Source of the DNA: Nitrospirales bacterium | GTDB lineage: Bacteria; Nitrospirota; Nitrospiria; Nitrospirales; UBA8639 | Assembly (NCBI GenBank): GCA_029261295.1 | Contig: JAJDBP010000009.1 | Location: 1-64,000 of the forward strand | Length of the DNA: 64,000 bases | Reading direction: 5' to 3' | Shown here: in pieces, positions 1,409 to 32,905 of the stretch | How the letters are laid out: every line of letters begins with the position of its first letter | Numbering within the stretch: position 1 is the stretch's first letter | Notes under the pieces: generated by a model | Seen by the model: the letters and a program-made list of their open reading frames with translations, nothing else | What the model was told of the DNA's origin: nothing | Database searches by the model: none | Made by a program: the position numbers and the translations under genes

Positions 1409-1451
1409 CCGCAAGAAGGTATACTCCCCCTTTCTAACGGAGGTGTGAGTG

Positions 1452-2879
1452 ATGAGCGGATTTATTCAAAGCGACGATCGCCGCCAAGTGACCTTATTCC
1501 CCGAACAATTAGATGACTACATTGCCGAGGACAACTCGGTGCGGGTCATCGATGTCTTCGTGGACGATCTGGATCTCTCAGGGCTTGGCTTCAAAACGCA
1601 TTCAGAGAAAACAGGCCGCCCCGCCTACCACCCAACGATCCTGCTCAAGCTCTATGTCTACGGGTATCTCAACCGGGTGCAGTCCAGTCGTCGCCTGGAA
1701 CGGGAAGCGCACCGCAACGTGGAGCTCATGTGGCTCACGGGCCGCTTAGCGCCGGACTTTAAAACGATCGCCGACTTTCGCAAGAACAATGGTGTTGCCA
1801 TTCGCTTGGTCTGTCGGGAGTTCATCATGCTGTGCAAGAAACTCAATCTATTTGCCGACGCCTTCGTCGCCATTGACGGCAGTAAGTTCAAGGCCGTGAA
1901 TAATCGAGACCGGAACTTTACGAAGGCCAAGATGCAGCGCCGGTTGCAACAGATTGATGAGAGCATTGCACGGTATTTGGGCCAAATCGCCAGCGCGGAT
2001 CGCCAGGAAGCGGCGGTGGCCACGGAGAACACTCAACGGCTGGAGGACAAGATCACGGCCCTGAAGACGGAAATGGCCCGCCTCAAGAAACTCGAAGGCC
2101 AGATGCATCACGCGCCAGACCACCAGATTTCATTGACGGACCCAGATGCTCGCTCGATGAAAACGAGGGGCACTGGCATCGTTGGGTATAACGTCCAGAC
2201 CGCTGTGGCCGTCGAACACCACCTGATTGTGGCCCATGAGGTGACCAATACCGGCAGCGATCGGCACCAGTTATACCACATGGCGCAACACGCGAAAGCA
2301 GCGATCGGATCGGAAACGCTCGAGGTGGTGGCCGACCGGGGATACTTCACTAGTGAAGAAATCCTGGCCTGTGAGCAGTCCCAGATCACAACCTATCTCC
2401 CCAAGCCTCAGACATCGGGAAGTACGAAGAAAGGCTTGTTTAGCAAACGTGACTTCATCTACCACGCGGAGGATAATGAATACACATGCCCAGCCGGGGA
2501 ACGCTTGATCTGGCGGTTCGAGACACAGGAAAAAGGCTTGACGCTCCACAAGTACTGGTCCTCCCATTGTCCGACCTGTCCCATCAAGGCACAATGCACG
2601 ACCGGGACCTATCGGCGAGTGACGCGATGGGAACATGAAGCCGTGCTCGAGGAAGCGGCAGCTCGCCTCGAGCGAGAACCCGAGCGGATGCGCACGCGAC
2701 GAGCCACTGTCGAGCATCCGTTTGGGACCTTGAAGTTCTGGATGGGGTACACCCACTTCCAAATGAAAACGCTCAAACATGTGGGCACCGAAATGAGTTT
2801 GCATGTGTTGGCATACAACGTCAAACGGGTGCTGTCGATTCTGGGCGTGAAGCCGCTCCTTCAAGCTCTTCAGACGTGA
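1452..2879 (+). CDS. IS1182-family transposase
   Basis: This 475-residue protein is of normal length for IS1182-family transposases. The N-terminal region (DRRQVTLFPEQLDDYIAEDN, then the stretch around RPAYHPTILLKLYVYGYLN) is the typical DUF772/transposase 5 domain. The DDE domain includes FVAIDGSKFKAVN with the first acidic residue near residue 142, a second acidic residue in the VVADRGYFTSEE segment, and the C-terminal R-x-x-VEHPFGTLK segment with the catalytic glutamate. A four-cysteine segment (CPTCPIKAQC) lies between them, as usual. A long charged coiled coil is inserted after the first catalytic aspartate. The start is the ATG at 1452, 8 nt after the GGAGG at 1439; a GTG at 1449 is also in frame. 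No frameshift or internal stop is seen, so the gene appears able to act. Confidence 0.9.
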   Translation: MSGFIQSDDRRQVTLFPEQLDDYIAEDNSVRVIDVFVDDLDLSGLGFKTHSEKTGRPAYHPTILLKLYVYGYLNRVQSSRRLEREAHRNVELMWLTGRLAPDFKTIADFRKNNGVAIRLVCREFIMLCKKLNLFADAFVAIDGSKFKAVNNRDRNFTKAKMQRRLQQIDESIARYLGQIASADRQEAAVATENTQRLEDKITALKTEMARLKKLEGQMHHAPDHQISLTDPDARSMKTRGTGIVGYNVQTAVAVEHHLIVAHEVTNTGSDRHQLYHMAQHAKAAIGSETLEVVADRGYFTSEEILACEQSQITTYLPKPQTSGSTKKGLFSKRDFIYHAEDNEYTCPAGERLIWRFETQEKGLTLHKYWSSHCPTCPIKAQCTTGTYRRVTRWEHEAVLEEAAARLEREPERMRTRRATVEHPFGTLKFWMGYTHFQMKTLKHVGTEMSLHVLAYNVKRVLSILGVKPLLQALQT

Positions 2880-17799: not shown

Positions 17800-18927
17800 T
17801 TAGGACGACGAGGTAAGAGAGGTATATGCACTGAGACGGCCTTCCAAGTCTTTGACCTCGTCGCCTTTCTTTAATAGCTCATTATTTAATAATTGATTCT
17901 GGAGTTCCATATTTCGCAGGTCATCCTGCAGGCTTTGTAACTCAGGATGAAAGCTATCAAGTTTTTGCCGGGTTTCTAATACCTGACCAGTGAGTTGAGC
18001 CTTTGTCTCCTGTAATTCTTTGCCCAATTGCGCATTGCTGGCCACTAACCGCTGCATCTCTTGCGTGGGATTGGTTGGTGGTGCCTGTTTGGCTTGGGCG
18101 AGTTGGGTTTTGATCTCCTGTAACTCTTTGGTCAATTGCGTATTGCTCACCTGTAATGCCTGCATTTCTTGGGTAGGCTCGGTCGGTGGTGCCTGCTTGA
18201 CTTGGGTGAGTTGGATTTTAATCTCCTGTAACTCTTTGGTTAATTGTGCATTGCTGACCTGTAACGCTTGCATCTCTTGTGTGGGTTTGGTCGGCGATGC
18301 TTGATTGGCTTGAGCGAGTTGAGTTTTTGTGGCCTGCAGCTCTTCTGTCAAGTGGGCGTTGATATCTTTAAGATTCCAGATTTCTTGAATTTTCTCTGCC
18401 CGTAGCTTTGAGAAATCAGCTTCGATTTTCGTGGGTTCGGTCGGCGGTGCCTGTTTGATTTGATCGATTTGGGTTTTGAGTTCCTGCAACTCCTTGGTCA
18501 AGTCCGCTTGGCGGACTTGTAAGGTTTGTAGTTCTTGGGTGACCTCGGTCTTAGCCTGGATGGCTTGGGTCAGTTGGGTTTTTGTTTCTGGCAGTTCTTT
18601 GTTCAATTGTGCATTGCTGGCCTGCAACGTTTGCACCTTTTGTGTGAGTTCAGTATTCGCTTGCAAGGCTTGAGTCAGTTGGGTTTTTGTTTCTGGCAGT
18701 TCTTTGCTCAATTGTGTATTGCTGGCCTGTATCGTTTGCACCTTTTGTGTGAGTTCGGTGTTCGCTTTCAAGGTTTGGGTGAGTTGAGTTTCTTGTGCTC
18801 TAAGTTTGGTCAATTCAGGTTCGATTTTCTTCACTTGGTCTCCCAAGCTTGCTTTGTCGCTACACAAGGTCTGAGCAACGGCTTGAACTTCTTCTAGTAG
18901 TTGAAGAATATCTTTTTTGCCCTTCAT
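17800..18927 (-). CDS. Repetitive coiled-coil protein of unknown function
   Basis: The 375-residue protein is almost entirely heptad-like coiled coil rich in Gln, Thr, Leu, Lys and Glu. Two kinds of tandem repeats are seen: a unit of about 35 residues near residues 50-150 (NTELTQKVQT-QASN-QL-KELPETKTQLTQ) and a unit of about 40 residues further on (QEMQALQVSNAQLTKELQEIKIQLTQVKQAPPTEPT), the latter broken by short Pro-rich linkers. Repeats are similar in DNA as well, indicating expansion by duplication. No signal peptide or membrane span is present, so it is probably cytoplasmic. The open frame runs upstream to 18960; the ATG at 18927 follows an AAAGG site. It is convergent with cheB. Function unknown; a structural or scaffold role is possible. 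Confidence 0.75.
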   Translation of the reverse strand: MKGKKDILQLLEEVQAVAQTLCSDKASLGDQVKKIEPELTKLRAQETQLTQTLKANTELTQKVQTIQASNTQLSKELPETKTQLTQALQANTELTQKVQTLQASNAQLNKELPETKTQLTQAIQAKTEVTQELQTLQVRQADLTKELQELKTQIDQIKQAPPTEPTKIEADFSKLRAEKIQEIWNLKDINAHLTEELQATKTQLAQANQASPTKPTQEMQALQVSNAQLTKELQEIKIQLTQVKQAPPTEPTQEMQALQVSNTQLTKELQEIKTQLAQAKQAPPTNPTQEMQRLVASNAQLGKELQETKAQLTGQVLETRQKLDSFHPELQSLQDDLRNMELQNQLLNNELLKKGDEVKDLEGRLSAYTSLTSSS

Positions 18928-19660
18928 TTTTGTACTACCTTTCGCTTGACTGAAGATCACGTAATCCTTAACTGACTATTGCCGGGCACTTTTTAGGTTT
19001 CAACATGGGTTACTGCTTGAGAGTGTCCGATATGGTGTTCGCAAAATGTCTCATCAGCTACGTGCAGGGTTCCCTATTACCTGTTCGGTTTTTTTTCTCT
19101 AAATATTAAGGCCTTTTAACACAAAAAATGGTTCTTGATTGCCCCATTCATCTATTTTCAGCGCAGTTCTTTTGTGTTAAGCATCGGTAATTTTGAGTAT
19201 TCAGTAATTCATTTAGTAGGACTCACAATAGTTTTCAATTCTTTTAGGAAGTCTTTGGCAAAACCGTACGCGCATTCTTTCAATTATAGATGAAAGTAAT
19301 GCTGAAGAATTCTGTACTGAAGGAGGAGTGAGGAGCTGCAAGATGGAGAGGCTACGATTCTTGGCTGATGGGTTATGGCATTTTACCTAGGATACTGATC
19401 TCTCAGTAGTGGCATTTCAAGGACGTCGTACTTTGTATCAATGGAATGAATGGTAGGGGCAGGCCAGGAAATTTTCTTGATCTGACACAGATCTATCTGG
19501 GGGTATCTTTTCGGTGTTAGTTTGGAAGGAAATTTTTCTTAAAACCTCTTATTTCATAGGCCTTTATGGTATTTCATGAAGGATTTTAAATTCTCAGGTT
19601 AATATTAATAACGAAAGTTCCGATAATAGAAAATATACATCCTTAGCATGAGGAAATAGT
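18928..19660. other. Intergenic region without a recognised gene
   Basis: About 730 nt, AT-rich. It should contain the promoters of the divergent coiled-coil gene and lipoprotein gene. A short frame at 19343-19456 is broken by an in-frame TAG at 19388 and shows no family match, so it is not called. No hairpin with a T tract was found. Confidence 0.4.
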
Positions 19661-27123: not shown

Positions 27124-27816
27124 TTAAGACAACCAGACACGGATCGATTGCATCCAACGGACTCCATAAAGAACAAAGCCTAACAATTTAGGGACACTAA
27201 GTTGGATTGGCTGGGTCTTTAGGCATTGGATGACATAGGTTGCAGCCTTCTCTGTGGTCATCATGAGCGGTTTCCATGAGGCCTTTGGTAATTTCGTATC
27301 GACATAGCCAAAGCGGATATTGGTAATGTGAATCCCTTTAGGTTTGAGCTTTAAGGCCATGGCGATAAGATAGTTGCTGAACCCCGCTTTTGATGCCGTG
27401 TAAGACGGTGCATCGGTATTATAAAAATCATCAGCTAAACTCGAGAGTCCAATAAAGTGTCCTCGGCCCTGTTCTATCCATCCTGGGGTAAGCCCTGCCA
27501 GTGTATGTACCATGGCGGTGAAGTTTACCTCGATAACATGGGCCTCTTGTGAGAGATCGGGAAGCGTGAGCCCCGATCCAATGGCCGCACAAAATATACA
27601 TGTATCAAACGGACCTTCCTCCACTAGAATACGGCCTAGTTTATCAGGGTAATCAGGGGCGGAAATATCTTGGACAATGTGTGTGGGTCCATGAGGTCCT
27701 AGTGGACTTGGGCTTCGAGACATACCGACAACCTGATCGCCTCGGGCAACGAGAGCCCGTGTAACGGCAGCCCCAATTCCATCAGAATTTCCAATCAGTA
27801 ATACTTTTTGTATCAT
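27124..27816 (-). CDS. Short-chain dehydrogenase/reductase (SDR)
   Basis: The 230-residue protein has the SDR cofactor motif (LIGNSDGIGAAV, in place of TGxxxGIG), a conserved Asp (VQDISAP), the Ser of the active site (IGLSSLAD) and the YTASK tetrad motif. The NAG motif region reads FCAAIGSG. It oxidises or reduces a hydroxy/keto group with NAD(P)(H). It is divergent from the operon starting at 27914, about 100 nt away, and may act on an intermediate of that operon; this is only a suggestion. The C-terminal end contains a hydrophobic, basic stretch (VRWMQSIRVWLS). Confidence 0.85.
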   Translation of the reverse strand: MIQKVLLIGNSDGIGAAVTRALVARGDQVVGMSRSPSPLGPHGPTHIVQDISAPDYPDKLGRILVEEGPFDTCIFCAAIGSGLTLPDLSQEAHVIEVNFTAMVHTLAGLTPGWIEQGRGHFIGLSSLADDFYNTDAPSYTASKAGFSNYLIAMALKLKPKGIHITNIRFGYVDTKLPKASWKPLMMTTEKAATYVIQCLKTQPIQLSVPKLLGFVLYGVRWMQSIRVWLS

Positions 27817-27913
27817 GGGATTTTGTTGAATGTTTTAATTTGATAGGCAGTATAAAATCCCCCAGGTTGGGGGAAATTGCTCTAAAAGAAAAATCCGGCT
27901 ACTCTTACTTTTA

Positions 27914-28201
27914 ATGAACCTTTCTCGTGATTCCTGGCTCTTGGTCGTTGGAGCGCAGCCTACAGAATCAATATTCGTTTTTTACGCGATGAGGGGAATT
28001 CTTGGGATATTTTATCTTATTTCCATCGTATGCCTATGGAAACTTTGGAAAAAGCCGATATCTGTTTTAAGCCGAGTGCTTTGGTCATTTGTCCTTCTTA
28101 TTCCTCTGATTGGGCCGATTCTTTACGGGGGCTTATTTCGGCCTCCTTCAATACAACCAGAAGATCAAAGAGCTCGTGGGCGATTTTATGGGGGAGGTTG
28201 A
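27914..28201 (+). CDS. Small membrane protein, PLDc_N-like
   Basis: The 95-residue protein has two hydrophobic helices (about 20-42 and 55-73) and the segment FVLLIPLIGPILYGGLFRPP, similar to the phospholipase D nuclease N-terminal (PLDc_N) membrane module. It starts the operon that runs to 32303. The next gene starts 2 nt after its stop. Function unknown. Confidence 0.65.
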   Translation: MNLSRDSWLLVVGAQPTESIFVFYAMRGILGIFYLISIVCLWKLWKKPISVLSRVLWSFVLLIPLIGPILYGGLFRPPSIQPEDQRARGRFYGGG

Positions 28202-28203
28202 AG

Positions 28204-28683
28204 ATGGAGCCTGGTGCGGCACACCAAGCGACATCTCGATTCTACGCAGGAGTCCTATTACTTCTGACAGGTCTTTTTGCCTGTCGAGTACTCGCGCAGC
28301 TCGTTCAGTTTGTCTATCCGGTAGATTTTCTTCCTCCCTATTCCGCTTGGCATAGCGGAGCCCTGCCCTATGGGTGGTTAGTGTGTGCACAAGGGGTGAT
28401 TCTTGGTGCATGTTTGCGCATTGTGTGGGGCCTGAAAAAGGGAACGATTTTTCCAGCTGAACGTAAGGGAAAAATTTTACTCACGCTGGGTACCATCTAT
28501 CTGGTAGGAATGTGCATCCGATTGATTGTCGGATTGACAATAGCCCCTGAACATTATTGGTTTGGAGCCTTATTGCCCACTGTATTTCATTTGGTGCTAG
28601 CTTCTTTTGTGCTGATCTATGGCCGGTTCCATGGTCAAGCTTTTCAGGTGCCAACACGAAATTCTCAAGGACAAACCCCATGA
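28204..28683 (+). CDS. Four-helix membrane protein of unknown function
   Basis: The 159-residue protein has four hydrophobic segments (starting with FYAGVLLLLTGLFACRVLAQLV) and no recognised domain. The ATG at 28204 follows a GGGGGAGG site and sits 2 nt after the previous stop. The longer frame from 28030 only reads across the previous gene and is rejected. Its end overlaps the next gene by 4 nt (ATGA). Confidence 0.7.
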   Translation: MEPGAAHQATSRFYAGVLLLLTGLFACRVLAQLVQFVYPVDFLPPYSAWHSGALPYGWLVCAQGVILGACLRIVWGLKKGTIFPAERKGKILLTLGTIYLVGMCIRLIVGLTIAPEHYWFGALLPTVFHLVLASFVLIYGRFHGQAFQVPTRNSQGQTP

Positions 28684-29561
28684 AGGTCGTTGTGCGGTAT
28701 GCGGGCTATCCCATGATGCTGGCATTCGGTATTGGTCTGCATTATGTCCTTCTCGCGAATCATGCGGGGGTTCAAGTCGCGACCTATCTGCCTGTTATTG
28801 TTGGGGCGGTAATGATTACTGGATTGGAATGGGCATATCCTTGTAAACAGCAGTGGTGGGCCAATAAACAGGAGATGGCTCAAGATGCTATTTTTATGAC
28901 GCTCATTCAAGGCGTTTTGCCAAAACTACTCGCTGCGGGCGTGATATTAGTGCTGTCAGAGAATTTTGATAAGCAGTATTTATTGGTAGAGGGTGTGTGG
29001 CCGACTCAATGGCCTGTTCCCTTACAAATGCTGTTGATGATGGTGCTTGCGGATGGCTTGCGGTATTGGTTACATCGTTGGGCACATGAATGGGAACCGC
29101 TTTGGCGTTTTCATGCGGTTCATCATTCTCCGCATAAATTGTATTGGCTCAATGTTGGACGATTTCATCCGATTGATAAGGGATTACAAGTCGTGTTTGA
29201 TACGTTGCCATTTTTATTCCTAGGAGTTGGGGAACAGGTGCTGGGTCTCTATGTTGTCTGTTATGCCATTAATGGCTTTTTCCAACATTGCAATGTGGAT
29301 CTGCGTCTCGGCATCTTGAATTACCTCATTAGTGGTCCAGAATTACATCGTTGGCATCATTCCAAATTGAAGCAAGAATCAAATCATAATTATGGGAATA
29401 ATCTCATCGTCTGGGACCTCCTGTTTGGCACATGGTATTTGCCCAAAGAACGGATGGTGGAGGAATTGGGCTTAGTGAATCGACAATACCCATCCGCTTT
29501 CCTAAAGCAGATGACGGTTCCTTTTATTCCAGGAGCAGATAAACAATCGGTATCAACATGA
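28680..29561 (+). CDS. Sterol desaturase/fatty acid hydroxylase-family membrane di-iron enzyme
   Basis: The 293-residue protein has several membrane helices and the three histidine clusters of the fatty-acid-hydroxylase superfamily: HRWAHE (HxxxH), HAVHHS (HxxHH) and HRWHHS (HxxHH), plus an isolated His in NHNYG. These bind a di-iron centre that hydroxylates or desaturates a lipid. The ATG at 28680 overlaps the stop of the previous gene (ATGA) and its own stop overlaps the next start in the same way, so translation is coupled. The substrate is unknown; the context suggests an acyl chain used by the GH3-type enzyme encoded next. Confidence 0.88.
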   Translation: MKVVVRYAGYPMMLAFGIGLHYVLLANHAGVQVATYLPVIVGAVMITGLEWAYPCKQQWWANKQEMAQDAIFMTLIQGVLPKLLAAGVILVLSENFDKQYLLVEGVWPTQWPVPLQMLLMMVLADGLRYWLHRWAHEWEPLWRFHAVHHSPHKLYWLNVGRFHPIDKGLQVVFDTLPFLFLGVGEQVLGLYVVCYAINGFFQHCNVDLRLGILNYLISGPELHRWHHSKLKQESNHNYGNNLIVWDLLFGTWYLPKERMVEELGLVNRQYPSAFLKQMTVPFIPGADKQSVST

Positions 29562-31198
29562 ATCGTTTCACTCTCGGACACAATCCGCAAATGCATGTGA
29601 AGATGTTGGAGCTAAAGCATCGATTGTGGAAGCCTTTTGTTAAGGATTCCCATAATCCTCAAGCCACGCAGCAAGCTCTGCTAGAACGTATTCTTTCCAC
29701 TCAAGCTCAGACGGAATTTGGGAAGAAATATCGATTGGCGCGTCTTCGTGGCTATCATGAGTTTAGATTGGGTGTCCCGATTCAGACGTATGAAGATTTG
29801 CGTCCATATATTCAAACGCAAGAAGACTTACAGGTGCCTCAGCTCAATAATGAACAACCTATAAGCTATGCGATGACCAGCGGAACGACGGGAAAGCCAA
29901 AAATGATTCCGATGCTTCATCGCACCATCCAGATGCTTCGGCGCTATCAAGGGTTGAGTACGTATGCGCAATACCAGGGAATTCCAAAGATCTTTCAAGG
30001 GAAGATGCTGGTTATTGCAGGCCAAGAAGCTGAAGGGCAGCTAGAGACAGGAACTTCTTATGGATCCATGTCCGGGTTCTTATCCGCTGCTCTCCCTTCG
30101 GTGCTTCAAGTTAAGCGGATTCTTCCAGAGGCTATTCACGATATCTCTGAGTACCAGAAAAAATATTTGTACTTAACAGCGTGGGCCTTATCAGAGCCAA
30201 ATCTTTTTGTGGTGGCCACGGCTAACCCGTCTACCTTTCTCAAGCTATTGGAAATAGGTCGTCAACATTTTTCTCAACTTGTCGAACAGTTGAAAGTGAA
30301 TTGTAAGAATTCACATGAAGGAGCAATTCCCGTTCCTTGTCCTACGCGGCGACGATTACAATTCCTAGAATCTTTTATTGGACATGAAGATCAGTTAACC
30401 GTGGAAGCACTATGGCCGAAGTTGAAGGCGGTAGTGACTTGGACCGGAGGAAGCTGTGGGGTATTGATTCCAAAGCTCAAATCTAGACTTTCAGCCAAAA
30501 CCGCCATTGTGGAAATGGGATATTTGTCCAGTGAGGTACTCGGAAGTCTGAATGTGGATGTCCAAACCAATCAATGTGTTCCTACCTTTCAAGAAAACTT
30601 CTTTGAATTCGTCGAACAGAATGATTGGGATGCCGATCGTCCCAATACGCTGACCCTTGAACAATTGGAAATTGGCAAACGATATTATGTGCTGGTGACT
30701 ACGATGAATGGGCTCTATCGCTATTTTATGAATGACCTCGTGGAGGTCACCGGGTGGTTTTATCAGACCCCTACCATTCGCTTCGTCCAAAAGGGTAAAG
30801 GGGTGACCAACTTGACTGGCGAAAAGTTGTATGAATTCCATGTGATGGCTGCTGTTGAGCGCATTCAACAGGAATATCAAATCATGGTGGATTTTTATGT
30901 CATGTTGGCCGATCCACTGACATTGCAATATACCTTATACCTTGAGCATCCACCGTTGGACTTTTTTGTCGGATACAAGCTGGAGCAACATATGGGAATA
31001 GCCAATGTGGAATTTCAATCCAAACGAGAGAGTGGAAGACTACAACCACTTATAATTGTGTATCTACAACCAGGGACGGGCGAAGCCTATAAGGCCCATT
31101 GTCTCCAGCAAGGTCAGCGGGATACTCAATATAAGGTGGTGCGATTACAATACGCCAGAGACTGTTCTTTTAACTTCCCTGCCTATGTGAGACCGTGA
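29558..31198 (+). CDS. GH3-family acyl-adenylating (acyl acid-amido) synthetase
   Basis: The 546-residue protein matches the GH3 family throughout. The ATP/AMP-binding P-loop is TSGTTGKPKMIP (residues 107-118), the TWTGGSCG segment corresponds to the acyl-binding region, and the later LTGEKLYEFHV motif is typical. Plant GH3 enzymes activate acyl acids with ATP and join them to an amino acid; bacterial GH3 proteins are largely uncharacterised. The length is normal. The start ATG overlaps the stop of the hydroxylase gene by 4 nt. In this operon it could form an amide between a modified fatty acid and an amine or amino acid. Confidence 0.85.
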   Translation: MNRFTLGHNPQMHVKMLELKHRLWKPFVKDSHNPQATQQALLERILSTQAQTEFGKKYRLARLRGYHEFRLGVPIQTYEDLRPYIQTQEDLQVPQLNNEQPISYAMTSGTTGKPKMIPMLHRTIQMLRRYQGLSTYAQYQGIPKIFQGKMLVIAGQEAEGQLETGTSYGSMSGFLSAALPSVLQVKRILPEAIHDISEYQKKYLYLTAWALSEPNLFVVATANPSTFLKLLEIGRQHFSQLVEQLKVNCKNSHEGAIPVPCPTRRRLQFLESFIGHEDQLTVEALWPKLKAVVTWTGGSCGVLIPKLKSRLSAKTAIVEMGYLSSEVLGSLNVDVQTNQCVPTFQENFFEFVEQNDWDADRPNTLTLEQLEIGKRYYVLVTTMNGLYRYFMNDLVEVTGWFYQTPTIRFVQKGKGVTNLTGEKLYEFHVMAAVERIQQEYQIMVDFYVMLADPLTLQYTLYLEHPPLDFFVGYKLEQHMGIANVEFQSKRESGRLQPLIIVYLQPGTGEAYKAHCLQQGQRDTQYKVVRLQYARDCSFNFPAYVRP

Positions 31199-31211
31199 AC
31201 CAAGATTTTCT

Positions 31212-32303
31212 GTGAAGCTCACGATCAAACAACTAGAAATCCCATTTAAGCAGGCATTTGCACATGCCACAGCCACCCGTTCCTGCACAGAAAGTGTCGT
31301 GGTGACAGCAGAATTTTCAAATGGGATACGAGGAGTAGGTGAGGGATGTCCAAGGAAGTATGTCACCGGAGAGTCGATTCAAACTGCCTTGGATTTTTTT
31401 AATTCGAATCGAGAGGAATGGGAAGAGTTTAATCGTTTAGAGGATCTTAAGGCATGGATGTCTTTGAATAGAGAATCGATCGATAATAATCCAGCCTGTT
31501 GGTGTGCAGTCGAGTTGGCCTTTTTAGATGGGTGGGGACAAGATAAGAGGCAATCAATAGAAAGTTTTCTCGACCTTCAGGCGTTAACTGGTGATTTCCA
31601 TTATTCTGCTGTGTTGGGAACGGAGAATCTCGCGAGCTTTGAAAAACAAGCTCAGCAATTTTCAGCACTTGGTTTTTGCGATTTTAAGGTGAAGGTCAAT
31701 GGGAAGATTGAAGAGGATCGACACAAAATTCAGTTTCTCACGAGTCTTCCTATTAATAATATTCGTATACGTTTAGATGCCAACAATCTCTGGAAATCCG
31801 CTGTCGAAGCCGTAAAGTATCTCAGTGCTCTTGAATATCCATTATTTGCGATTGAAGAGCCATTGCAGGTTGGAGATTATGACGGTTGCCGGCAAATCAA
31901 CCAAGAACGTGGCTGCCCGATGATACTGGATGAAAGCTTTTTGCGGATTGAACAGTTGGATGACCTACAAAAGGATCCTCAGTCTTGGATTATTAATATT
32001 CGAATTTCAAAAATGGGCGGCATGCTCCGATCCTTAGAAATTGCCAGACAGGCCCAAGCCATGGGTATTCAGATTATCATTGGAGCACAAGTCGGAGAGA
32101 CAAGTATTCTCACTCGAGCGGCACTCACCGTTGCTAATCAAAATCGTGACAATCTTCTAGCCCAGGAAGGGGCGTTCGGTACCTATCTTTTAGAACACGA
32201 CATCACTGACACCCCTCTCATGTTCGGCAAAGGTGGAACACTCGATCCTCAACCTCTCAGCAGTCAGCCTGGCCTTGGGTTGGTTCTCTCGCAATTGTCC
32301 TAG
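31212..32303 (+). CDS. Enolase-superfamily enzyme of the muconate-cycloisomerase/dipeptide-epimerase type
   Basis: The 363-residue protein has the capping domain (MKLTIKQLEIPFKQAFAHATATR) and a barrel domain with catalytic and metal residues: Lys159-Val-Lys161 in KVKVNG, Asp189 in RLDANN, Glu215 in AIEEPL and Asp240 in ILDES. At the sixth strand the sequence is INIRISKMGG, where relatives often read NIKxxKxGG, so the first of the two lysines is Arg. The family includes L-Ala-D/L-Glu epimerases and other dipeptide epimerases. The GTG at 31212 lies 13 nt after the GH3 gene. It would be a racemase, epimerase or cycloisomerase; the substrate is not known. Confidence 0.82.
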   Translation: MKLTIKQLEIPFKQAFAHATATRSCTESVVVTAEFSNGIRGVGEGCPRKYVTGESIQTALDFFNSNREEWEEFNRLEDLKAWMSLNRESIDNNPACWCAVELAFLDGWGQDKRQSIESFLDLQALTGDFHYSAVLGTENLASFEKQAQQFSALGFCDFKVKVNGKIEEDRHKIQFLTSLPINNIRIRLDANNLWKSAVEAVKYLSALEYPLFAIEEPLQVGDYDGCRQINQERGCPMILDESFLRIEQLDDLQKDPQSWIINIRISKMGGMLRSLEIARQAQAMGIQIIIGAQVGETSILTRAALTVANQNRDNLLAQEGAFGTYLLEHDITDTPLMFGKGGTLDPQPLSSQPGLGLVLSQLS

Positions 32304-32416
32304 TTTTTTTTCTGTTGAGTCAGAGGATCATATGATTGACTTCCTTTCCTTCTGTACATTTTCTGAGGGGTTGGCTAGGATGGTGGTCCAATCACCAAAT
32401 TCTTGAAAACTTGAAT

Positions 32417-32905
32417 ATGAAAAAGAAGATTGCAGTTTTTGTGTCTTTCGCTCGTGCTAATCGTGATTTGGCGACACGGTTTTTGAAAAAGTTCAAAGAG
32501 CAGGCCGCACCTTCCAAGCACTATCACTATGTCTTTTGGAGAGATGCGGATATTCTCGTTGGGGAAAAATGGCATGAGACCATTCAGAAAGCCTTAGGTC
32601 AATGTGATGTTGGGTTGGTGTTAATCAGTCCCGCGTTTTTGGGATCGCAATACATTCAGGATCATGAATTGCCAAAATTTTTGAAAAACAGAGGAAAGTC
32701 AGTTATTCCTGTTTTGCTCCAACCCATTGACTTAGATCGTCATGATCTAAAGGGATTGCAGCGCACGCAAATCTTTCGTTTGGATCGTCCGCGCTTTGCT
32801 TTCCCCAAGGCCTATGGAGAATGTTCCGGACCTCAACGCGATCAATTTGCGCTGGAGCTCTTTCGTCAGGTTGAAACTCGTTTGGATAAAGCCTTAAGCA
32901 AGTAG
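32417..32905 (+). CDS. Stand-alone TIR-domain protein
   Basis: The 162-residue protein is a single TIR domain: strand A is IAVFVSFARANRD, the BB-loop region is FWRDADILVGEKWHETIQKAL, and helix C region is LVLISPAFLGSQYIQDHELPKFL, whose Glu corresponds to the catalytic glutamate of TIR NADases. DPVLL-type strand D follows as VIPVLLQPID. An in-frame TTG at 32336 would add 27 residues with no TIR homology; I chose the ATG at 32417. It is 111 nt after the enolase-type gene and 128 nt before the DUF2130 gene. TIR proteins of this size act as NAD-consuming effectors or as binding modules in defence and signalling. Confidence 0.82.
   Translation: MKKKIAVFVSFARANRDLATRFLKKFKEQAAPSKHYHYVFWRDADILVGEKWHETIQKALGQCDVGLVLISPAFLGSQYIQDHELPKFLKNRGKSVIPVLLQPIDLDRHDLKGLQRTQIFRLDRPRFAFPKAYGECSGPQRDQFALELFRQVETRLDKALSK

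What the first reader, a model, noticed from the sequence alone, without database searches (positions are those of the whole stretch)
27914..32303. Five-gene operon of membrane proteins, lipid hydroxylase, GH3 enzyme and enolase-type enzyme
Seen: gaps of 2 nt, two ATGA overlaps and a 13-nt gap bind five genes into one operon. Known: GH3 enzymes make acyl-amino-acid amides; the di-iron family hydroxylates lipids; the enolase group includes dipeptide epimerases. Inference: a pathway making a hydroxylated N-acyl amino acid or a related membrane lipid. A divergent SDR may add a redox step.
Basis: partly seen in the sequence, partly recalled or inferred. Interest (0 to 1): 0.65.

Follow-up and report, generated by a model that had tools for sequence, protein, structure and literature searches.

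The report
Conserved predicted acyl-amino-acid lipid gene cassette
Four genes in this operon travel together, and decay together, in Nitrospirota and Nitrospinota bacteria (two phyla known for nitrite oxidisers), and together they look like a pathway that joins an acyl acid to an amino acid and hydroxylates the product into an as yet unidentified lipid.

Summary
The five genes and their spacing are as described (gaps 2, -4, -4, 13 nt). The real unit is the last four: a 4-helix membrane protein (g2), a di-iron hydroxylase (g3), a GH3 amide synthetase (g4) and an enolase-superfamily protein (g5). The same order was found in 16 Nitrospirota and 6 Nitrospinota genomes, with GH3 identity down to about 43% and different flanks. 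In 295 sampled Nitrospirota genomes, nine carry an intact set and one an interrupted one; one more is cut by a contig end, two hold decayed remnants, none an intact subset. The first ORF (g1) and the divergent SDR are not part of the unit. The likely pathway: GH3 makes an N-acyl amino acid, the enolase-type enzyme acts on its amino-acid part, and the OlsE-like hydroxylase finishes the lipid. It resembles OlsH/OlsE ornithine-lipid synthesis but fails both family cut-offs (87 of 620 and 200 of 475 bits); no OlsB or OlsI gene was found. The enolase keeps its metal site and KxK but has an invariant Arg (21 of 21) where five aligned solved relatives have Lys, so it is not a standard dipeptide epimerase. 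The product is unknown.

The parts
27914..28201 (+). g1: 95-aa membrane ORF, weak PLDc_N similarity; lineage-specific, not part of the conserved core
   Evidence: PLDc_N 17.4 bits, cut-off 23.3; open in L014 and L016, stop in L015, absent in L013, L018, L019
28204..28683 (+). g2: 159-aa integral membrane protein, four long helices, no known family; core gene 1
   Evidence: 21 homologues, 28 invariant columns including Q32, Q35, W49, R106, H129; AF2 pLDDT 82, helices 3-37, 56-79, 86-113, 119-155
28680..29561 (+). g3: membrane di-iron hydroxylase of the fatty-acid hydroxylase superfamily, nearest named family OlsE; core gene 2
   Evidence: OlsE model 199.6 bits, cut-off 475; ten conserved His, 21/21
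29558..31198 (+). g4: GH3-family acyl-acid amido synthetase (ATP-dependent adenylation); core gene 3
   Evidence: OlsH model 87 bits, cut-off 620; AtGH3.15 1.5e-28; motifs TSGTTGxPK 107-115, GYLSSE 321-326, GLYRYxxND 385-393
31212..32303 (+). g5: enolase-superfamily enzyme (MLE/dipeptide-epimerase-like) with K159, K161, D189, E215, D240 kept and Arg264 in place of the second catalytic Lys; core gene 4
   Evidence: R264 in 21/21; R264 follows strand 259-263

Best explanation
g2-g5 (28204-32303) are a biosynthetic cassette for a modified N-acyl amino acid, probably a membrane lipid. Shown: the four genes are one co-inherited and co-lost unit; g4 keeps all three GH3 nucleotide-binding motifs; g3 keeps the di-iron histidines; g5 keeps the Mg site and KxK but has Arg in place of the opposing Lys. 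Inferred: (1) g4 adenylates a long-chain acyl acid with ATP and transfers it to the alpha-amine of an amino acid, as OlsH does to make N-acyl-ornithine. (2) g5 acts on the alpha-carbon of the amino acid or of the N-acyl amino acid. Because the Lys/Lys pair is broken, it probably uses KxK as the main base with Arg264 as electrophilic or proton-donating partner, so it is an unusual epimerase or a one-base isomerase/eliminase. A diverged GH3-enolase neighbour pair without g2/g3 suggests this step does not need the hydroxylase. (3) g3, in the membrane, hydroxylates the head group or acyl chain of the product. (4) g2 is a membrane partner that holds or moves the lipid. A second acyl chain, if any, would come from a housekeeping acyltransferase, since none is in the cassette.
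For: Gene order conserved in 16 Nitrospirota and 6 Nitrospinota genomes; block presence/absence and block decay; pairwise protein distances correlate, r 0.79-0.95; empty sites in cassette-free relatives; GH3 domains and motifs; g3 closest to OlsE, 35% identical over its full length to a protein that passes the OlsE cut-off; OlsH precedent (PMC12493201); GH3 next to an enolase of the same Arg type in G024.
Against: No substrate is known for any of the four proteins. g4 is as close to plant GH3 enzymes as to OlsH, so its acyl acid need not be a fatty acid; GH3 genes elsewhere sit in unrelated settings (polyketide and radical-SAM clusters). No O-acyltransferase is in the cassette and no OlsI over cut-off is in the genome. 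The GH3-enolase pair without g2/g3 is a single case. The function of g2 is a guess.
Confidence: 0.58

Rival explanations
1. The cassette makes a non-lipid amide: g4 conjugates a small or aromatic acid to an amino acid, and g3/g5 modify a secondary metabolite or signal rather than a membrane lipid.
For: Best solved relative of g4 is a plant GH3 (AtGH3.15), and plant GH3 enzymes use small hormone-type acids (established knowledge; PMC12493201); bacterial GH3 genes occur in polyketide and radical-SAM gene clusters; patchy distribution suits a specialised metabolite.
Against: g3 and g2 are integral membrane proteins and g3 is closest to a lipid head-group hydroxylase; no transport, NRPS or PKS gene consistently accompanies the cassette.
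Confidence: 0.2
2. A hydroxylated ornithine (or lysine) lipid made by a diverged OlsH/OlsE pathway, with g5 only supplying or salvaging the amino acid. This is a special case of the best explanation, in which the amino acid is ornithine or lysine.
For: g3 and g4 both have Ols enzymes as closest NCBIfam families; the genome has no OlsB-type N-acyltransferase, so another route would be needed.
Against: Both score far below the family cut-offs (87 of 620, 200 of 475), while a Bacteroides GH3 scores 430 on the same OlsH model; no OlsI over cut-off in the genome; no Ols gene set is known to me with an enolase.
Confidence: 0.2
3. Quinone or other isoprenoid tailoring: g3 hydroxylates an isoprenoid and g4/g5 are MenE/MenC-like.
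For: g5 has weak menC similarity (76.8 bits) and g4 weak menE similarity; in one Nitrospinota locus a UbiE-type methyltransferase overlaps the end of g5 by 4 nt.
Against: menC cut-offs missed by far (76.8 of 200.65); g4 is full-length GH3, not MenE; the UbiE neighbour occurs in one locus only; the cassette is patchy while quinone synthesis is essential.
Confidence: 0.05
4. The five genes are an ordinary operon of unrelated membrane and metabolic genes kept together by chance in one lineage.
For: g1 is lineage-specific and neighbouring genes (SDR, THAP4, TIR) are also syntenic within the family.
Against: The order is kept across two phyla with different flanks, presence/absence is as a block, and no intact subset was seen.
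Confidence: 0.03

Closest known systems
OlsH-OlsI(-OlsG) ornithine-lipid pathway of Singulisphaera acidiphila (PMC12493201)
   Same: A GH3-family enzyme in an operon, expected to make an N-acyl amino acid in an ATP-dependent way with no acyl-CoA or ACP; recognisably the same three nucleotide-binding motifs.
   Different: g4 scores 87 of 620 bits on the OlsH model; no OlsI-like acyltransferase or OlsG in the cassette; adds a di-iron hydroxylase, an enolase-type enzyme and a 4-helix membrane protein of no known family.
OlsE, ornithine-lipid head-group C4 hydroxylase of Rhizobiaceae
   Same: Same superfamily, same length, full set of conserved histidines; about 35% identity over the full length to an Ensifer protein that passes the OlsE model.
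   Different: 200 of 475 bits; lies in a GH3-enolase operon; substrate unknown.
L-Ala-D/L-Glu and other dipeptide epimerases / N-succinyl-Arg racemase (enolase superfamily, MLE subgroup; 1JPM, 3JVA, 2P88)
   Same: Fold, metal ligands D189, E215, D240 and the KxK motif K159/K161; TGE loop motif.
   Different: The sixth-strand catalytic Lys is Arg264 in all 21 members; none of the NCBIfam cut-offs is met; the partner gene is GH3.
Plant GH3 acyl-acid amido synthetases (AtGH3.15, JAR1)
   Same: Three-part GH3 architecture and nucleotide-binding motifs.
   Different: Bacterial, operon-encoded with lipid-type enzymes; acyl acid and amine unknown.

Membership tests
GH3 acyl-acid amido synthetases | GH3 N-terminal, central and C-terminal domains | tested here: met
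   158.5, 75.3, 44.3 bits, each over the cut-off of 23.6
GH3 acyl-acid amido synthetases | three nucleotide-binding motifs | tested here: met
   TSGTTGxPK, GYLSSE, GLYRYxxND conserved; for 21 members, few substitutions in Nitrospinota
GH3 acyl-acid amido synthetases | ATP-dependent amide formation | not testable with these tools
   needs an assay
OlsH (lyso-ornithine lipid synthetase) | score over the NCBIfam NF052613 cut-off (620 bits) | tested here: not met
   87 bits for g4, 81-100 for two relatives; Bacteroides GH3 430
OlsH/OlsI pathway | OlsI O-acyltransferase present | tested here: not met
   best 44 bits of 385 in the whole genome; no alpha/beta-hydrolase is a conserved part of the cassette
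OlsE (ornithine lipid hydroxylase) | score over the NCBIfam NF052566 cut-off (475 bits) | tested here: not met
   200 bits for g3; Ensifer control 493
Fatty acid hydroxylase (di-iron) superfamily | conserved histidine clusters HX3H, HX2HH, HX2HH | tested here: met
   His132, 136, 145, 148, 149, 163, 203, 223, 226, 227 in 21/21
Dipeptide epimerase (enolase superfamily) | KxK and three acidic metal ligands | tested here: met
Dipeptide epimerase (enolase superfamily) | second catalytic Lys at the end of strand 6 | tested here: not met
   Arg264 in 21/21; Lys in all five aligned solved relatives
Dipeptide epimerase (enolase superfamily) | DxD motif on strand 8 (own knowledge of 1TKK) | tested here: inconclusive
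   columns 330-333 read mostly D-(I/L)-x-x, but alignment and model are weak there
o-Succinylbenzoate synthase (MenC) | score over the TIGR01928/TIGR01927 cut-offs | tested here: not met
   76.8 of 200.65 and 75.2 of 130.55

The most novel reading that the evidence does not exclude
An undescribed class of bacterial amino lipid, found so far in two phyla that include major nitrite oxidisers, made by a GH3 synthetase working with a new type of enolase-superfamily enzyme (Lys/Arg instead of Lys/Lys) that changes the stereochemistry or structure of the amino-acid head group before membrane hydroxylation.
Probability: 0.25. Interest if true: 0.75.

Novelty: new variant of a known kind. Interest (0 to 1): 0.5.

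Why it matters
GH3-dependent amino-lipid synthesis was reported in 2025 in one planctomycete (PMC12493201), and its authors expected other bacterial GH3 enzymes to make other N-acyl amino acids. This cassette gives a defined, testable case in other phyla, with three accompanying genes that predict what else happens to the product. If it is a membrane lipid it could serve as a marker for part of the Nitrospirota/Nitrospinota. The Arg-type enolase is an active-site variant of a well-studied superfamily for which I found no characterised member.

Tried and rejected
SDR (27124-27816) as a pathway gene: it stays next to TIR/DUF2130 in cassette-free relatives and is absent beside the cassette in family f3 and Nitrospinota. 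TIR (32414-32905) as a cassette member: a conserved TGTACA-17-TAGGAT promoter-like element precedes it with or without the cassette. g1 as core. Recent transfer between phyla: the GH3 tree keeps Nitrospinota and Nitrospirota family f3 each in one group; f1 splits by one weakly placed row. G133 hydroxylase as an isolated g3: only about 30% identical, another member of the superfamily. G298 as an isolated g5: the cassette runs off the contig end. Fold search with g2: best Foldseek E about 1, VIA Z about 8 to long-helix proteins, which is uninformative. OlsB domain in own genome: none. Plasmids: only distant GH3 (up to about 30% identity over part of the query), no g2. Literature: no paper in the library was found that describes this gene set. 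The wide genome scan used single-protein patterns and finds close relatives only, so presence in other phyla is not excluded.

Full report
What was checked. Pfam and NCBIfam give a weak PLDc_N for g1, nothing for g2, FA_hydroxylase for g3 (nearest NCBIfam family OlsE), full three-domain GH3 for g4 (nearest NCBIfam family OlsH) and the enolase-superfamily C-terminal domain for g5. The GH3 in the window is the only one in its genome, a 4.06-Mb assembly. Named close relatives are 'Nitrospirota bacterium' and 'Nitrospirales bacterium' MAGs, and a Nitrospina MAG.

The unit is four genes. tblastn of the window's proteins against the GH3 loci of other genomes shows g2, g3, g4 and g5 together in the same order every time this type of GH3 occurs: eight genomes of the window's family, eight of a second Nitrospirales family, and six Nitrospinota. 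GH3 identity to the window falls from 81% to about 43%. Spacing stays operon-like: the 4-nt overlap between g2 and g3 is kept in 18 of 22 loci. g1 is open in the window, L014 and L016, has a stop in L015, and is absent from L013, L018 and L019. SDR, THAP4, TIR and DUF2130 flank the cassette only in the window's family. Elsewhere the flanks are unrelated.

It is present, absent and lost as a block. In an even sample of 295 Nitrospirota genomes, the same ten genomes give full-family matches to g3, g4 and g5. Nine look intact and one (G173) has an interrupted GH3. Three further partial matches were inspected. G298 is cut by a contig end. G168 has lost everything from the middle of g3 to the middle of g5. 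G213 has lost most of g4 and g5 and has frameshifted g3. No genome holds an intact subset. In Nitrospinota, 6 of 77 genomes carry both GH3 and enolase, in the same genomes. Within the window's family, cassette-free genomes have the SDR start 150-270 bp from TIR or DUF2130 in seven of eight cases. Pairwise distances of the four proteins correlate at r 0.79-0.95. This correlation is also expected of any genes inherited together, so the block decay is the stronger argument.

What each protein can do. g4 keeps the three GH3 nucleotide-binding motifs. In OlsH the Ser of the first motif is essential (S115A abolishes activity, PMC12493201). The corresponding TSGTT is invariant here. g3 keeps all ten conserved histidines in 21 of 21 members. 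On the OlsE model it scores 200 bits against a cut-off of 475. An Ensifer plasmid protein found as a roughly 35% identical full-length match passes at 493, so the test works. g5 keeps the metal ligands D189, E215 and D240 and the KxK pair K159/K161. The second catalytic Lys, which lies 24 residues after the last metal ligand in solved relatives, is Arg264 in all 21 members and also in the distant pair. An AlphaFold model places it just after strand 259-263, with fold matches to dipeptide epimerases and muconate cycloisomerases. The model is moderate (pLDDT 74, poor after residue 320). g2 is predicted as four long helices (pLDDT 82) with no informative relative in any library searched.

An informative outlier. 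Genome G024, of the same family, has a GH3 at 33-35% identity next to an enolase at 29-30% that also has the Arg, without g2 or g3, and with the enolase upstream. If this pair is functional, GH3 and enolase may be the older partnership, with the hydroxylase and g2 as additions. That argues that the enolase does not act on the hydroxylated product. It is a single case.

Mechanism. The most economical reading is ATP-dependent formation of an N-acyl amino acid by g4, alpha-carbon chemistry on the amino-acid part by g5, hydroxylation in the membrane by g3, and a membrane role for g2. The first step rests on the OlsH precedent (PMC12493201). The third rests on the OlsE resemblance. The second is the weakest, because the Lys/Lys pair of known racemases and epimerases is not there. 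No second-chain acyltransferase is in the cassette. The genome has no OlsB domain and only generic alpha/beta-hydrolase scores on the OlsI model (44 of 385 bits).

Compared with what is known. It works like, but is not a member of, the OlsH and OlsE families: both curated cut-offs are missed by a wide margin, whereas a Bacteroides GH3 reaches 430 of 620 on the OlsH model. It is not a dipeptide epimerase by the catalytic-Lys test. The OlsH authors state that bacterial GH3 homologues outside planctomycetes may use other amino acids, so a GH3-dependent amino lipid is an expected kind. The combination with an Arg-type enolase and a hydroxylase was not found in the papers searched.

Limits. Nitrite oxidation in the carrier genomes was not tested here; the link rests on general knowledge of Nitrospirales and Nitrospinota. 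Presence in other phyla is not excluded, because the single wide scan finds close relatives only. The GH3 tree gives no sign of recent transfer between the phyla, but deep forks are weakly supported.

Noticed in passing
window 32353-32382 and 32414-32905: A TIR-domain gene (weak ThsB-type match) preceded by a promoter-like element TGTACA-17-TAGGAT that is conserved upstream of the TIR gene in several cassette-free relatives; TIR and DUF2130 are neighbours in most members of the family.
   Followed up: partly
L023 7544-10962: A diverged GH3 next to an enolase with the same Arg substitution but without hydroxylase or g2, beside cyclic-nucleotide and histidine kinase/cyclase genes.
   Followed up: partly
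L094 1389-2643 and L095 1483-3096: Decayed remnants of the cassette with internal deletions.
   Followed up: yes
L051 5825-6556 and L050 5643-6293: SAM methyltransferases directly downstream of g5 in two Nitrospinota loci; the L051 one is UbiE-type and overlaps g5 by 4 nt. They could be head-group methyltransferases or chance neighbours.
   Followed up: partly
window 27858-27874: A G+C-rich hairpin (TCCCCCAGGTTGGGGGA) in the divergent SDR-g1 intergenic region.
   Followed up: no
L085 4073-5394: About 1.3 kb without cassette genes sits between SDR and TIR, where other cassette-free relatives have 150-270 bp; only a very weak 31-aa match to the g5 C-terminus (E 0.002) was seen.
   Followed up: partly
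window 17800-18960: A coiled-coil ORF with repeated units of the type TQEMQALQVSNAQLTKELQEIKTQLTQ..APPTEP.
   Followed up: no
window 1449-2879: A transposase-like ORF of 476 aa (by eye IS1182-type).
   Followed up: no
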